Notes under the pieces: model-generated | Seen by the model: the letters and a program-made list of their open reading frames with translations, nothing else | What the model was told of the DNA's origin: nothing | Databases searched by the model: none | Origin: Catalimonadaceae bacterium JC749 | GTDB taxonomy: Bacteria; Bacteroidota; Bacteroidia; Cytophagales; Cyclobacteriaceae | Assembly (NCBI GenBank): GCA_021730635.1 | Contig: JAJNNC010000005.1 | Span: forward strand, 186,001 to 250,000 | Reading direction: 5' to 3' | DNA length: 64,000 nt | Made by a program: the position numbers and the translations under genes | In this document: positions 37,203 to 42,644 of the stretch, one piece after another | How positions within the stretch are numbered: position 1 is the stretch's first letter | How the letters are laid out: each line of letters opens with the position of its first letter

Positions 37203-38357
37203 TTAAGAAATCTGCTGGAAAGCGTCGGCAAAGAGTTCCATATCTTTTTTAGTGCCGATACTGACCCTGCAGTAGTGCTGGTCGCGGTAGAAAATCCGCT
37301 TTAAACCCACGCCCCGCTTCATCATCTCCATCACAAAGCGGTCACCCTCCATACGAATGGGGAACAGCACAAAATTGGTATCTGAGGGAATATATTCGTA
37401 TCCGTTATCCGAAAGAATGCTATAGAGCATCTCTTTGGATTCCTTGTTCATCTTCCGGCTATACTGCATAAATTCAGGGTCTTCCAGGGTAGCAATAGCG
37501 CCAACCACGCCGGGGCGGCTCATACCGTTGCCGTCGGTGCCGTACTTTTTCAAGGCTTTGATATTGTCCGGATGGGCAATACAATACCCGATTCGCATAC
37601 CGGCCATGGCATGCACTTTAGAGAAAGTACGAGCCACCATCACGTTTTTGCCCTGTTTGACCAGGCCGATCATGGTTTCCGTTTCCGGTTTTTCCTGATA
37701 ATCCAGGTAAGCTTCATCCACAAACACCGGCTTTTTGGCAGAAGCTGCTTCACAAAACGCTTTAATCTGAGAAGTCTTGGCTTTGACACCGGTAGGGTTA
37801 TTCGGATTGCACAGGTAAATCAGATTGATATCTGCCTTTACGGCTTCCAGCATACGGTCAAAATCATAGTCATACTGCGGGGTAAGCGGCACGGTGACCA
37901 GTGTAGCCCCATAATCTTCACAGGCCCGCCGGATCAAAGACATATAGGTAAGGTCTGCCGACAGGATCTGGTGTCCCTTCTGGCCGAAATGCTGGGCAGC
38001 GGCCATCAGCAGTTCGGTAGAACCGGCTCCCAGCATCACATGGTCTTCCGGCACTTCCCACTGGTTGGCAATCATCTTTCTGAGCTGATCGCTGCTTAAT
38101 TTAGGATACATCCAACTATCCTTGATGGCCTCGCACATGGCTTGCTGTGCTTTGGGAGAGGGTCCGAAAGGATTTTCGTTGGAGGTAAGCCGGGCTTTCA
38201 TATTGGTGAAATCCCAGGGTGATTTTTCCATCGGGGTAAAGGTCGTACTGATCAGGTCAGGGGTATATTCGGCATACACTTTTTGCCCCATGACCAGGGC
38301 ACCTGCCATCAGGGCAGATGACTTGAACCAGGTTCGGCGGTTGATAGATTTGTTCAT
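37203..38357 (-). CDS. Exported class I/II aminotransferase (HisC-like) with Tat signal
   Basis: A 384-residue PLP enzyme of the histidinol-phosphate aminotransferase type: SNENPFGPSPKA, LGAGSTELL, CNPNNPTGVK, FVDEAYLDY, the cofactor Lys (about 247) in ARTFSKVHAMAGMRIGY, and CRVSIGTKKDM. Unusually it begins NRRTWFKSSALMAGALVMG, a twin-arginine-type signal, so it is probably exported after folding with PLP. True HisC is cytoplasmic. Its substrate in the periplasm is unknown. It is single, with its own terminator. Confidence 0.85.
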   Translation of the reverse strand: MNKSINRRTWFKSSALMAGALVMGQKVYAEYTPDLISTTFTPMEKSPWDFTNMKARLTSNENPFGPSPKAQQAMCEAIKDSWMYPKLSSDQLRKMIANQWEVPEDHVMLGAGSTELLMAAAQHFGQKGHQILSADLTYMSLIRRACEDYGATLVTVPLTPQYDYDFDRMLEAVKADINLIYLCNPNNPTGVKAKTSQIKAFCEAASAKKPVFVDEAYLDYQEKPETETMIGLVKQGKNVMVARTFSKVHAMAGMRIGYCIAHPDNIKALKKYGTDGNGMSRPGVVGAIATLEDPEFMQYSRKMNKESKEMLYSILSDNGYEYIPSDTNFVLFPIRMEGDRFVMEMMKRGVGLKRIFYRDQHYCRVSIGTKKDMELFADAFQQIS

Positions 38358-38643
38358 AGCGATCAGGGTTGATAGAAAAAAAATACTGATCGCTAATTAA
38401 CAAAATAATATTTTAAAAAATCAAATTTTATCAGAATAAATTAATAATAATATAGATAAAGATAGGAAGAAAGGGGAAGTATAAGCCTGAAAAACAAATA
38501 TTTATAGATTTTGGGATTTGTAAATGATTGCTACTTTAAAAAGTAACTTTTATATGTATTCTGTAATTGGAGCTCATTTAAATATTTTGTTTTACAAACC
38601 TTAGCTTATGGGTAATATCCTTAGGCTATGTCACCTTTTGTTC

Positions 38644-38749
38644 TTGTTCATTTTTTTCTTGACAAAAAAACGAACCAAAAAAGTCAAGAAAATTTAAAGC
38701 TTCTTCACGCAAGGCCAGCGCACCCTCGCTAAATTTTCGGCCAACACAC
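38644..38749 (+). repeat. Left 106-bp inverted repeat flanking the AlbA_2 gene
   Basis: This copy is the reverse complement of 39824-39929 with about six mismatches. The outer 69 bases (38644-38712) are identical. Inside it, TTTTCTTGAC and GTCAAGAAAA form an imperfectly looped hairpin around CGAACC. The rest of 38358-38825 is AT-rich with no gene seen. Confidence 0.9.
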
Positions 38750-38825
38750 ATAAAACGTATACATCAAAATTAATACAAGCTAATGTCTTAATGATTTGCA
38801 TAAAATTATTAAAAGGTTGAGAAGA

Positions 38826-39770
38826 CTACCATTTTGATTGTTTAATTAATTCGGAAGTTATTACTTCACCATTTGCTAATCTAAACTCAATTGGTTTGTG
38901 CATAAGGTTATTTTTTTCGCGAGCTAACTCTTGTTTCTTCTCTGCTATATCAATTCCTTCAAAAGGAATTGAAAACAAAGTGACTGACCCATTCCATATT
39001 TCACCGCTCTTGATTAAGATGTTTCTTGCATGTAAACTATTCAAAGTATTTAGGTATATTATGTCATGATTGTCTGGATTATGATCAAAATGTATCTTCA
39101 GCCTAATGGAATTAATGGCTACTGGCCTTCTGCCAACGTTTTCTAGAGTTAAATGAAAAGTGAGGATGATTCTACTCTTACTATCAACATTGAAGGCAAC
39201 AGAATTTATGTGGTAATTGGAGTAGATTTTATACTCTGGTATAACATTTTTTCTGTCATAATACATTAATTCCAGATCATGTTTAGAAGCAGGAAAGGTC
39301 CCGGAGATTTTGCGAACAAAAACTCTATTTTGCTCATCGCGCAAAGTTCCATCCTTATTTAATGTCTGGTAAAGTTTAATGACATGTGGTTTGTCAATGG
39401 AGGGTGGTATATGTAGTACACTTAATGAATGGTTATCAATTTGAATGTCATAATAATTTATATGAAATAAACTGTCTACTTTTTTTATTATAAGGTTCAT
39501 CAAATCTGATGAATCCCGCAAACCACATTCTGAAAAGAAAGTATCTCTAAAAGATTTATCTTTTTCATCATATCCGATAATTATATAGCCATCCAGGCCA
39601 AAACTATTGGCAATAGCAGAGGTGTCCTTTAGAAACTCATTAATGCCAGAAGTCGTTTTAAGGTCATACCAGTTTCTTTTAAAATCAAGTTTAGGGTTTT
39701 CCTTCTCTAATCCTTCGATGGATTGTTTGATATATGAATTTACGATTTGTTTTATTTGGTCTTCTGTCAT
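38826..39770 (-). CDS. Schlafen/AlbA_2-domain protein with novel C-terminal beta domain
   Basis: A 314-residue protein. The N-terminal half matches the AlbA_2 (Schlafen) fold: LDFKRNW (usually ELKR), FLKDTSAIANSFGLDGYIIIGYDE, then the RVFVRKISGTFPAS segment near residue 155. Such domains bind or cut nucleic acids and are frequent in phage-defence genes. Residues about 171-314 are a beta-rich unknown domain (AFNVDSKSRIILTFHLTLENVGRRPVAINSIRL). The gene is AT-rich, uses rarer codons than its neighbours, and lies alone between 106-bp inverted repeats, suggesting a transferred cassette. Confidence 0.75.
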   Translation of the reverse strand: MTEDQIKQIVNSYIKQSIEGLEKENPKLDFKRNWYDLKTTSGINEFLKDTSAIANSFGLDGYIIIGYDEKDKSFRDTFFSECGLRDSSDLMNLIIKKVDSLFHINYYDIQIDNHSLSVLHIPPSIDKPHVIKLYQTLNKDGTLRDEQNRVFVRKISGTFPASKHDLELMYYDRKNVIPEYKIYSNYHINSVAFNVDSKSRIILTFHLTLENVGRRPVAINSIRLKIHFDHNPDNHDIIYLNTLNSLHARNILIKSGEIWNGSVTLFSIPFEGIDIAEKKQELAREKNNLMHKPIEFRLANGEVITSELIKQSKW

Positions 39771-39823
39771 TTTAAAATGCCAATGTTGAGGTTGCTTTAA
39801 TTTTTAAAATAGTCACTTTTACA

Positions 39824-39929
39824 GTGCGTGGGGCGAAAATTTAGCGAGGGTGTGGTGGCTTTGCGTGAAGAAGCTTTAAATTTTCTTGACTTTTTTGGTT
39901 CGTTTTTTTGTCAAGAAAAAAATGAACAA
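39824..39929 (-). repeat. Right 106-bp inverted repeat flanking the AlbA_2 gene
   Basis: Reverse complement of 38644-38749, ending 54 bp upstream of the AlbA_2 start. The whole unit is 1286 bp. No target duplication outside the repeats was found. The rest of 39771-40319 has no gene; it holds one 26-bp direct repeat (40107-40132). Confidence 0.9.
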
Positions 39930-40106
39930 AGCAGTAAGGCAATATTAAACTATAACCTTTCATATGGGCTAGGATGTTTATTTCCAAATTTTTAAAGATG
40001 CTATATAGCCATTTTAGCATACCATAAAATATAGTGAAAATACATCAGAATAGGTGAGATGTTGGATTAAACTCAGTATGAGGCTGGATTCTTCCTGTGG
40101 CATTGG

Positions 40107-40132
40107 GGTTTCTTTTGATTTCTGACGTGGGT
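40107..40132. repeat. 26-bp direct repeat, copy 1
   Basis: Starts GGTTTCTTTT and ends GACGTGGGT; identical over 26 bases to 43017-43042 and in the same orientation. The match stops at both ends. The two copies bracket the T9SS propeller gene. Confidence 0.85.
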
Positions 40133-40319
40133 GTGGAAACTACTTAGAAATTTATGTTTATTTGATTTTGCAAATAGTTAATAATCAATTTGGTATTTTA
40201 ACATGCTATGGATTTGTAGATAAATATGACAAATTATCACAAATCCACAGCCTACTAAAAGCAATTTTCCAAGATTATTTAACAAGAACTATTGAAGTGT
40301 ATTGCTTTACCTTCACATT

Positions 40320-42644
40320 TTACTCTATAATCAAACGTTTGATCTCTATAGCATCCGGGTAAACAATCTTTAAGTAGTAGAATCCTTTTTTATAGTGACT
40401 CAAATCCAGTTGTTCTACAGCATGTTCACTTACCTTTTGGGATAAAAGTACCTGACCTGTAAAATCCAGTAAAATCATTTCAGCATCTTTGAGTGTAGCC
40501 TTGTACCTGATGTTGACAATATCTTTGCTAGGTACCGGAAAAACCTCTACAGTAGATGTCTCTTTAGAAGTATCTCCTACGATAGAGAAATGGATGAATG
40601 AAGGCGTACCAATCTTGTTTCTGAGTAAAGGGTAAACACTAAGCAAATAGTTTCCTGGTTCAAAATGTTCTCCCACATAATCTTTGGTAGTACTATTTGC
40701 TATAGGATTATCACCAAATAAAGCGTAAGGCTTATGCTTTTCTACAAGAAGATGCTCAAATGGACCAACAAGATCAAACTCTACAGCTCCCAAATTTGGA
40801 GGTGTAGTATTGGCTCTGATGCTAAGCGTTGGATTGCCCAGGGTTGTAAGATCAATGATATCTCCATCTTTTAAAGTGGCTATGTCTGTATCAGTATCAG
40901 CATTTACCAGCGTAAAGCTTTTAATTGCTAAATTATAGACAATACTAAAAGAAATTTTATAAGTGGCGCCAGTTTTACCATTCAGATAAGGAGTAGCATG
41001 CATGCTATAACTCCCTATTGGCCATTGTTTTCCTGTATAGTCTCTTTTATTGCTACCAGCTTTTAATGCATCTCCAAATAAAGTATAAGGTTTAAAATTC
41101 TCCAGTTGCGTATGGCTGACAGGACCCTGGATCTCCAGTTTTATACTATCTACTGTTGTTGGCACGGTAGTAGCCCTCACAGAAAGTCTGGGATTTCCAA
41201 TTTCAGAAAGTTTAACGATGGATTCGTCACTGAGTAGGCCTATATCCTGATCAGTATTTGCATTGACCAAAATCAGACTTTTGGTATAAAAAGCATCTTC
41301 ATGAATGGAGACTATCCAATAATCTCGGTCACCTTTGCTGTTTTCTGATTTATCCCCTGAGGCAGGTGAATTAGACCATCCGGTAAGTAAGTAATTACCA
41401 TTAGGAGCAAGCAATAAACTGTAGGGACTATCAAAATCAGTACCTCCCAAAGTCTTATCCCAAAGTTTATTGCCATTGGTATCTACTTTAACTATCCAGA
41501 AATCAGCGCTGCCTTTACTATCTTCACTTTTGTCTCCTGAGACATTAGAGTCAGAATATCCGGCTAGCATATAAGCACCATCTTTAGTCGCTATGATACC
41601 AGTTCGAGGTATGTCATTGACCAGGCCTCCCAAAGTTTTATCCCATATCTTATTTCCATTTGAGTCTACTTTGACAATCCAATAATCTGGACCACCTACG
41701 CTATAGCTATCCTCACTTTTGTCGCCTGAAGCATCTGAGATTGACTCACCAGCCAAGAGGTAGGCTCCATCAATTGTGGAGATTGCATTGATCAGATAAT
41801 CAGACCAGCTACCACCCAGTGTTTTATCCCATATTTTATTACCAAGGGAATCTGTTTTTACTAGCCAATAATCAGAGTCACCTTTACTGTCTTCACTTTT
41901 ATCTCCGGAGGTGTTGGATGTGGACCAGCCTGTAATAAGATAGCCGCCATCAATAGATAGAATAACGTCAGTGGCCACATCGAAGTTACTGCCTCCAAAA
42001 GTCTTATCCCATAGTTTATTGCCATTAGCATCTATCTTCACCAACCAATAATCAGTGAAACCTCTATTGATCTCTGTTTTATCACCTGATGCAGTAGAAT
42101 AAGAATTTCCTACCAGTAGATAGCCTCCATCTGCAGTAGGGGTTATCCTATTAACGCCGTCATTACTGTTACCACCTATAGTTTTATCCCAAAGTTTGTT
42201 ACCAACGGAATCAATCTTAATAATCCATATATCAGTTTCTCCTTTGCTGTTTTCACTTTTATCTCCGGAAGCGTTAGAACTAGAATACCCTGCTAATATA
42301 TAGCCCCCATCTGCAGTAGTAGTGATATCTGATAGGTAATCCTCAACGTTGCTGCCAAAGGTTTTATCCCAAAGTTTATTGCCGAGAGAATCAATTTTAA
42401 TGATCCAATAATCATAGTTTCCTTTGCTATCCTCACTTTTATCAGAAGAGGAGTTTGAGAGAGAAATACCAGCGACTAAGAAACCTCCATCACTAGTAGC
42501 AATGGCATCAATAGGTTCATCAGAGGAATCACCTCCATAAGTCTTATCCCATTGGACAGATACTTGTGCAGTAGCATAGAAGTTATTAACCTGGAGGCAA
42601 TAGATCCCTAACAGTGATATAACGATGCAAAATGAGTGTTTCAT
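40320..42644 (-). CDS. T9SS-secreted seven-bladed propeller protein
   Basis: A 774-residue protein with a signal peptide (to about residue 27). Residues about 30-458 hold seven near-identical repeats of about 61 residues: WDKT.GG, then DGGY-L-G, SGDKSE.SKG and DYWI-K-D-GNK, one per propeller blade. Two further copies of a roughly 115-residue module follow (LVNANTDQDI ... PYTLFGD and LVNADTDTDI ... PYALFGD). The last 75 residues are a type A T9SS sorting domain (VFPVPSKDIVNIRY, LLDFTGQVLLS, GFYYLKI). It is therefore exported to the cell surface or medium; probably a binding or adhesion protein. Confidence 0.88.
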   Translation of the reverse strand: MKHSFCIVISLLGIYCLQVNNFYATAQVSVQWDKTYGGDSSDEPIDAIATSDGGFLVAGISLSNSSSDKSEDSKGNYDYWIIKIDSLGNKLWDKTFGSNVEDYLSDITTTADGGYILAGYSSSNASGDKSENSKGETDIWIIKIDSVGNKLWDKTIGGNSNDGVNRITPTADGGYLLVGNSYSTASGDKTEINRGFTDYWLVKIDANGNKLWDKTFGGSNFDVATDVILSIDGGYLITGWSTSNTSGDKSEDSKGDSDYWLVKTDSLGNKIWDKTLGGSWSDYLINAISTIDGAYLLAGESISDASGDKSEDSYSVGGPDYWIVKVDSNGNKIWDKTLGGLVNDIPRTGIIATKDGAYMLAGYSDSNVSGDKSEDSKGSADFWIVKVDTNGNKLWDKTLGGTDFDSPYSLLLAPNGNYLLTGWSNSPASGDKSENSKGDRDYWIVSIHEDAFYTKSLILVNANTDQDIGLLSDESIVKLSEIGNPRLSVRATTVPTTVDSIKLEIQGPVSHTQLENFKPYTLFGDALKAGSNKRDYTGKQWPIGSYSMHATPYLNGKTGATYKISFSIVYNLAIKSFTLVNADTDTDIATLKDGDIIDLTTLGNPTLSIRANTTPPNLGAVEFDLVGPFEHLLVEKHKPYALFGDNPIANSTTKDYVGEHFEPGNYLLSVYPLLRNKIGTPSFIHFSIVGDTSKETSTVEVFPVPSKDIVNIRYKATLKDAEMILLDFTGQVLLSQKVSEHAVEQLDLSHYKKGFYYLKIVYPDAIEIKRLIIE

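What the first reader, a model, noticed from the sequence alone, without database searches (positions are those of the whole stretch)
38644..39929. Schlafen/AlbA_2 gene boxed by 106-bp inverted repeats: candidate mobile defence cassette
Sequence: a single 314-residue gene sits between two inverted repeats of 106 bp with about six mismatches and a 69-base identical outer part. Each repeat carries its own internal hairpin. The unit is 1286 bp, AT-rich, with no transposase. Knowledge: AlbA_2/Schlafen domains act on nucleic acids and recur in phage-defence loci. Inference: a non-autonomous cassette mobilised in trans, or a defence gene captured between dispersed repeats. The C-terminal beta domain is unknown to me.
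Basis: partly seen in the sequence, partly recalled or inferred. Interest (0 to 1): 0.62.

Follow-up and report, generated by a model that had tools for sequence, protein, structure and literature searches.

The report
Schlafen gene between two dispersed repeats
A bacterial gene of a family linked to virus defence lies between two mirror-image copies of a scattered, knot-forming DNA repeat; the pair is probably not a mobile cassette, but the repeat looks like a widespread structured element that is worth following.

Summary
In detail: inverted arms 38644-38749 / 39824-39929, 106 bp, 6 mismatches, 69 identical outer bases, boxing one 314-aa SLFN_AlbA_2 gene. The cassette reading is not supported. 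The arms are copies of a dispersed intergenic repeat: model R2 finds 9 copies in the own genome at E<=1 and copies in 23 of 41 family and 32 of 296 phylum genomes, up to 57 in one. Beyond the shared core the arms carry different leaders. Of 99 SLFN_AlbA_2 hits in 41 genomes only this one is boxed by R2 hits; one other has a repeat within 5 kb. No target duplication was found; no empty-site test was possible. The repeat is the more interesting object: helices S1 and S2 interleave as in a pseudoknot and both covary. It matches no Rfam family where searched, lies without regard to gene direction (42 co-directional, 24 convergent, 23 divergent), and is absent at E<=0.5 from 80 Y1_Tnp loci. Mobiliser and function are unknown.

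The parts
38568..38641 (+). leader of the left element (resembles copies on contig C8 of the own genome)
   Evidence: leader alignment z 12.4 and 9.5 to the two C8 copies, 3.1 to the right arm, 0.4 to C18; start judged by eye
38642..38738 (+). left structured element, core: S1 38646-38657/38664-38675, S2 38658-38663/38683-38688 (interleaved, pseudoknot topology), S3 38689-38696/38730-38737
   Evidence: R2 match 102 bits; covariation
38826..39770 (-). 314-aa protein, SLFN_AlbA_2 domain residues 24-156; C-terminal part without a family above cut-off
39835..39931 (-). right structured element, core, inverted with respect to the left one (S1 39916-39927/39898-39909, S2 39910-39915/39885-39890)
   Evidence: R2 match 98.4 bits
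39932..40012 (-). leader of the right element (resembles the copy on contig C18)
   Evidence: z 13.4 to C18, 3.4 and 1.7 to the C8 copies; end judged by eye

Best explanation
Two separate copies of an interspersed, intergenic, structured repeat of Bacteroidota lie in opposite orientation on either side of a single SLFN_AlbA_2 gene; the box is a chance or cluster arrangement of repeats and not a cassette that moves as a unit. Shown: the repeat is dispersed; its fold (two interleaved helices plus a stem) is kept by compensatory changes; it sits between genes without regard to their direction; the two arms here have different leaders. Inferred: the repeat spreads as a non-autonomous element recognised in folded single-stranded form (DNA, or possibly RNA) by an enzyme supplied in trans that was not found; the cores of the two arms (93 of 96 aligned positions alike, against 90-94% to the C8 and C18 copies when inserted bases are left out) were kept or made alike by gene conversion between close inverted copies. 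The boxed gene is most likely an independently acquired, low-GC Schlafen-type RNase gene, possibly acting in phage defence; that function is inferred from the domain family alone.
For: Dispersal (own genome counted in each tally): 6 places in the own genome by sequence, 9 by R2 at E<=1; 30 of 98 genomes by sequence with at most 9 places scored in each relative; 23 of 41 family genomes and 32 of 296 phylum genomes by R2. Structure: 15 of 28 pairs with both-side changes, covariation score 0.245 against 0.078 shuffled and at most 0.046 slid; in a 62-copy alignment made without structure, S1 and S2 give 86.6% paired cells, 12 of 18 pairs with both-side changes, score 0.263 against 0.106 shuffled and at most 0.079 slid; alignment-free, 55 of 62 copies have S1>=8 and S2>=5 bp against 3 of 310 shuffled sequences. 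Placement: co 42, convergent 24, divergent 23 of 89 elements with ORFs on both sides; 18 of 107 at edges dropped. Different leaders of the two arms. Clustering: 3 pairs within 2 kb among 98 hits against 0.21 expected, one of the 3 being the window pair itself. Gene and repeat look independent: 99 SLFN hits in 41 genomes, 2 with an R2 hit within 5 kb, 1 boxed; in 30 fetched SLFN loci the best R2 match is E 0.23.
Against: No empty/filled site pair was obtained (no synteny in the one congener), so insertion is not shown for any copy. The target-duplication scan of G172 copies was uninformative: 19 of 28 copies got boundaries and most left boundaries were mis-set. C8a and C18 leaders also resemble each other (z 6.6), so the two leader types are not sharply separate. 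Convergent pairs of 323-392 bp recur in six loci of five genomes, which could be read as a two-ended unit. No mobiliser was found. The core likeness of the arms could mean that the pair arose together.
Confidence: 0.68

Rival explanations
1. A non-autonomous mobile cassette: the two 106-bp arms are terminal inverted repeats and the SLFN gene travels between them when a transposase acts in trans.
For: Identical outer 69 nt of the arms and low GC of the gene; gene rare (2 of 98; 5 of 395; own genome included in both); short convergent pairs of the repeat recur.
Against: Leaders of the arms resemble different copies; no target duplication; 77 of 107 listed copies without a second within 2 kb; no other boxed SLFN hit among 99; SLFN relatives in G018, G103, G398 lack the repeat.
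Confidence: 0.08
2. The repeat is a REP-like sequence moved by a Y1 (HUH) transposase of the TnpA_REP/RAYT kind, for which Bacteroidetes members (subclass 2.6) are reported to be flanked by atypical structures with copies elsewhere in the genome.
For: PMC6006769 section 25 describes such atypical structures in Bacteroidetes; Y1_Tnp hits occur in 35 of 41 family genomes, the own genome included, and once in G172, the genome with 57 copies. I did not see the published structures themselves, so identity with them is not excluded.
Against: No R2 match at E<=0.5 in 80 Y1_Tnp loci with up to about 1.5-2.5 kb on each side (30, 20, 30; best E 0.59; two genes are in twice; 67 of the 80 come from genomes that have R2 hits). 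The own-genome gene on C11 is flanked by a different inverted repeat, that of G172 by other repeats. G004, G012 and G347 have R2 hits but no Y1_Tnp hit.
Confidence: 0.13
3. The element is a transcribed structured RNA (a small RNA gene, attenuator or bidirectional terminator) present in many copies.
For: Covarying interleaved helices, long extended hairpin in G707, copies in G172 followed by a hairpin with a T-run, seen by eye.
Against: Position and orientation look random with respect to genes, unlike terminators or leaders; wobble counts do not choose a strand (G-U against A-C: S1 10 to 42, S2 13 to 8, S3 1 to 6); no terminator-like site was called in window 38400-40330.
Confidence: 0.2

Closest known systems
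REP / REPIN sequences with TnpA_REP (RAYT), in particular Bacteroidetes subclass 2.6 of PMC6006769
   Same: Intergenic, dispersed, structured; single, paired and clustered copies; no coding capacity.
   Different: Interleaved helices plus stem of about 95 nt instead of a small palindrome (20-40 bp by the abstract of PMC3733652) with a GTAG/GTGG foot; no R2 match beside Y1_Tnp genes; own RAYT-like gene has another repeat. The atypical structures of subclass 2.6 were not seen, so they may or may not be the same thing.
Bacterial MITEs
   Same: Non-coding; convergent inverted pairs of 323-392 bp in several genomes.
   Different: 77 of 107 listed copies without a partner within 2 kb; no target duplication found; some pairs with arms that do not align with each other; no parental transposase known.
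Integron attC sites (features from recall)
   Same: Folded repeats, direct-orientation arrays in some genomes.
   Different: The G223 array repeats the same non-coding unit of about 300 bp instead of different cassettes; integrase not searched.
Schlafen-type proteins of prokaryotes, e.g. 'CbCash' (PDB 9ylu)
   Same: SLFN_AlbA_2 region; phmmer E 1.1e-5 over residues 23-169.
   Different: C-terminal part has no family match above cut-off; no PADLOC model matched convincingly.

Membership tests
SLFN_AlbA_2 (PF04326) | Pfam gathering score | tested here: met
   43.4 bits against cut-off 25.3
SLFN_AlbA_2 (PF04326) | catalytic residues of Schlafen RNases | not tested
   -
Known anti-phage defence system | match to a PADLOC-DB model | tested here: not met
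   only Csx19 at E 0.018, 13.5 bits
Non-autonomous transposon cassette | both ends derived from one element end (same sequence beyond the core) | tested here: not met
   leaders resemble different own-genome copies
Non-autonomous transposon cassette | target-site duplication | tested here: not met
   longest shared word in 40-nt flanks 6 nt for the bare arms (23% of shuffles as long) and 5 nt outside the leaders (92%)
Non-autonomous transposon cassette | empty site in a relative | tested here: inconclusive
   no synteny in congener G001
REP with TnpA_REP (RAYT) | copies flank the Y1_Tnp gene | tested here: not met
   0 of 80 loci at E<=0.5
REP with TnpA_REP (RAYT) | dispersed, intergenic, structured repeat | tested here: met
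Rfam RNA family | match to any of 4227 models | tested here: not met
   window 38000-40600 and six loci (60 kb) searched: nothing near a gathering score, none on the element in the window
Integron attC array | folded sites separating different gene cassettes | tested here: not met
   G223 array only: tandem non-coding units
Integron attC array | nearby integrase | not tested
   -

The most novel reading that the evidence does not exclude
A phylum-wide (Bacteroidota) family of interspersed elements whose conserved part is a covarying pseudoknot followed by a stem, spread by an unidentified enzyme that recognises the folded single strand; it would be a new class of bacterial interspersed repeat, distinct from REP, ERIC and MITE, and the window shows two of its subfamilies with homogenised cores around a gene.
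Probability: 0.35. Interest if true: 0.7.

Novelty: new variant of a known kind. Interest (0 to 1): 0.42.

Why it matters
The 'boxed defence gene' looks ordinary, but the box is made of a repeat that recurs across Bacteroidota, keeps interleaved helices by compensatory change and matched no Rfam model. Selection on the fold of scattered, orientation-neutral repeats suggests a structure-recognising mobiliser or binding partner still to be found, which is testable in genomes with tens of copies.

Tried and rejected
Mobile cassette: not supported, on leaders, lack of target duplication and lack of any second boxed SLFN hit. Terminator or leader role: set aside as the main reading because placement is 2:1:1 with respect to ORF directions (ORFs of 80 aa or more by script, not annotated genes; both members of a pair count). 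RAYT neighbourhood: no copies. A GAGTAT word 69-79 nt before the core in five copies of G002, G022, G039 and near the start of many G172 copies was tested as a RAYT tag; the flanks of 20 RAYT-like loci do not share it consistently. Integron-like array: G223 units are tandem copies of one non-coding unit. Strand of a possible RNA: inconclusive. Empty site: flanks not syntenic in G001. Structure of the protein: single-sequence AlphaFold, mean pLDDT 38, not usable, so no fold search was made. Relatives of the protein: none in viral contigs or plasmids. An exact 31-nt GTAAC-type core is not in viral contigs. Literature: six core strings, 0 papers; of the listings only REP/RAYT papers were of use. 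Papers seen: PMC6006769 (section 25 in full, other passages), PMC12839542 (passages), PMC3733652 (abstract start and one passage), PMC12851939 (reference-list passages only; of no use). These searches cover open-licence PubMed Central only, so I do not claim that the repeat is not in print. Model R1 was built with a mis-set stem and was not used in any search; all model counts are from R2. R2 was built from copies found by sequence, so its hits are not independent of them; searches used stricter filters and scored 101 and 14 candidates per genome, so copy numbers there are lower bounds. No other-phylum control of R2 was obtained.

Full report
Observation. No comparable inverted pair was listed in the window. 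Between them lies one minus-strand gene, 38826-39770, with an SLFN_AlbA_2 domain, E 5.7e-11. The best solved relative by sequence is 'CbCash' (9ylu), E 1.1e-5 over residues 23-169; PADLOC and NCBIfam give only weak matches. Neighbours are an aminotransferase (37203-38357) and a protein with a Por_Secre_tail sorting domain (40320-42644), the latter typical of Bacteroidota by recall.

The arms are a dispersed repeat. In the own genome (8.0 Mb, 86 contigs) 6 places match the arm by sequence and 9 match the covariance model R2 at E<=1 (5 of them at E<=0.001). By sequence 30 of 98 genomes match, own included, with at most 9 places scored in each. By R2, 23 of 41 genomes of the family and 32 of 296 of the phylum match, own included in both. 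A deeper search of ten chosen, repeat-bearing genomes gives 57 copies in G172, 16 in G020, 13 in G002, 11 in G223 at E<=0.01. An exact 36-nt core occurs in three named contigs: Winogradskyella tangerina, an Algicola MAG and Paenimyroides baculatum, all Bacteroidota by recall. A Haliscomenobacter hydrossis plasmid has a weak match (46 nt, 82.6%, E 4e-3).

Anatomy. Read from the outside of the left arm: helix S1 (GTTCATTTTTTT with AAAAAAACGAAC), whose loop CTTGAC pairs with GTCAAG downstream (S2), then a stem S3 that encloses about 30 nt. S1 and S2 interleave, which is the topology of a pseudoknot; two alternative hairpins are not excluded by counting alone, and with no linker between S1 and S2 a full pseudoknot would be tight. 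On 20 copies, 15 of 28 pairs show changes on both sides and the covariation score is 0.245 against 0.078 in shuffles and at most 0.046 in slid controls. On a larger alignment of 62 copies (61 distinct), made by MAFFT without structure, S1 and S2 give 86.6% paired cells, 12 of 18 pairs with changes on both sides and 0.263 against 0.106 (shuffled) and at most 0.079 (slid). Against it: only 3 of 6 S2 pairs change on both sides, 31 of 60 rows lack a standard pair at S1 columns 9/31, and the number of further pair types is not exceptional (28 of 500 shuffles reach it). Alignment-free, 55 of 62 copies form S1>=8 and S2>=5 pairs against 3 of 310 shuffled sequences; a handful of those S2 helices are not of the CTTGAC type. 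Rfam has no match on the element in the window and none of note in six other loci. Distant copies in G707 carry a much longer hairpin after the S1/S2 part.

Placement. Of 107 elements listed, 89 had an ORF of 80 aa or more on both sides: 42 between co-directional, 24 between convergent, 23 between divergent ORFs, the 2:1:1 of random placement; 18 at edges were dropped, and members of one pair count twice. Element direction relative to co-directional ORFs was 22 against 20. 77 of the 107 have no second listed copy within 2 kb in the stretch held. Copies cluster more than random placement would give: 3 pairs within 2 kb among 98 hits against 0.21 expected, one of them the window pair that brought me here. 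Convergent pairs spanning 323-392 bp occur in six loci of five genomes (L079, L117, L196, L230, L231, L232; L196 and L231 touch a contig end and the left copy of L196 is weak, E 0.14); in L230 the arms do not align with each other at all, in L196 only out of register, in the others at 73-76% over 37-145 nt. Two further convergent pairs, L229 (span 1932 bp) and L173 (552 bp, weak), have arms that do not align. Direct pairs and one array of about 300-bp non-coding units (G223) occur too.

The pair in the window. Outside the core, each arm has a leader of about 75-80 nt that resembles other own-genome copies. The left leader matches the two C8 copies (z 12.4, 9.5) and the right leader the C18 copy (z 13.4); left against right is z 3.1; C8a against C18 is z 6.6. 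Most simply, the two arms are two elements of two subfamilies, while their cores agree at 93 of 96 aligned positions, against 90-94% to C8 and C18 copies with inserted bases left out. The C8 and C18 copies carry GC-rich insertions in the loops of the core, which the window arms lack. Gene conversion between close inverted copies is my explanation of the similar cores; it is inferred.

Gene against repeat. The protein has matches at E<=0.001 in 2 of 98 and 5 of 395 genomes, own included in both; the best is 33% identical over 253 aligned positions (37% over residues 2-233). Three relatives fetched with about 3.5 kb of flank show no R2 hit at E<=1. SLFN_AlbA_2 domains are common: 99 hits in 40 of 41 family genomes. 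Two have an R2 hit (E<=0.001) within 5 kb: the window gene, and one in G002 with a single copy 1.8 kb away. In 30 fetched SLFN loci, the window's not among them, the best R2 match is E 0.23. So neither needs the other.

Mobiliser. Y1_Tnp genes, the transposases behind REP sequences, were the best candidate, since PMC6006769 (section 25 in full, other passages) reports that Bacteroidetes subclass 2.6 genes are flanked by atypical structures with copies elsewhere. R2 finds no copy at E<=0.5 in 80 Y1_Tnp loci, 67 of them from repeat-bearing genomes, and the own-genome gene on C11 and that of G172 have other repeats at their sides. Three genomes with R2 hits have no Y1_Tnp hit (G004, G012; G347). 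The mobiliser, if any, is unknown; other transposase families were not tested.

Function of the gene. PMC12839542 (passages) states that several Schlafen-linked prokaryotic systems can act against phages and cites a 2025 preprint on bacterial Schlafens, which I did not see. A single-gene tRNA/rRNA-cleaving effector is a fair guess for this protein; it is not tested here, and catalytic residues were not assigned.

Verdict. Observation confirmed; mobile defence cassette not supported; the repeat family is the finding worth following.

Noticed in passing
L028 5610-5735, 14510-14662; L029 4775-4931 (own genome C8, C18): Copies of the repeat carry GC-rich, hairpin-like insertions in the loops and junctions of the core; several G002 copies (L074, L145-L148) carry other hairpin-like insertions at similar points.
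   Followed up: partly
L241 11903-14718 (G223:C6): Runs of about 300-bp non-coding, multi-hairpin units each holding the core, all in one direction.
   Followed up: partly
L244, L245 (G707:C1:597286-628722): All 6 copies found at E<=0.01 in this 3.7-Mb genome lie in one 31-kb stretch, same direction, among genes that by eye look like a variable region with a Vsr-type nuclease and a cytosine methylase.
   Followed up: no
L281-L300 and L248 (G172): 57 copies at E<=0.01, at least about 250 nt long, many with a 5' box like GAGTATCCGCTT and a terminator-like hairpin plus T-run at the 3' side.
   Followed up: partly
L120 1507-1547 and 2230-2270 (G000:C11): An own-genome Y1_Tnp gene is boxed by a different 41-nt inverted repeat with a GC-rich hairpin.
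   Followed up: no
L121 22-1120 (G000:C1): Six tandem repeats of 180 nt beside an own-genome Y1_Tnp gene; by eye their coding sense resembles the repeats of the window protein 40320-42644.
   Followed up: no
L225 2586-4569 (G018): The closest SLFN relative lies after a thioesterase-family gene and an unmatched 124-aa ORF and before an H+-pyrophosphatase gene.
   Followed up: no
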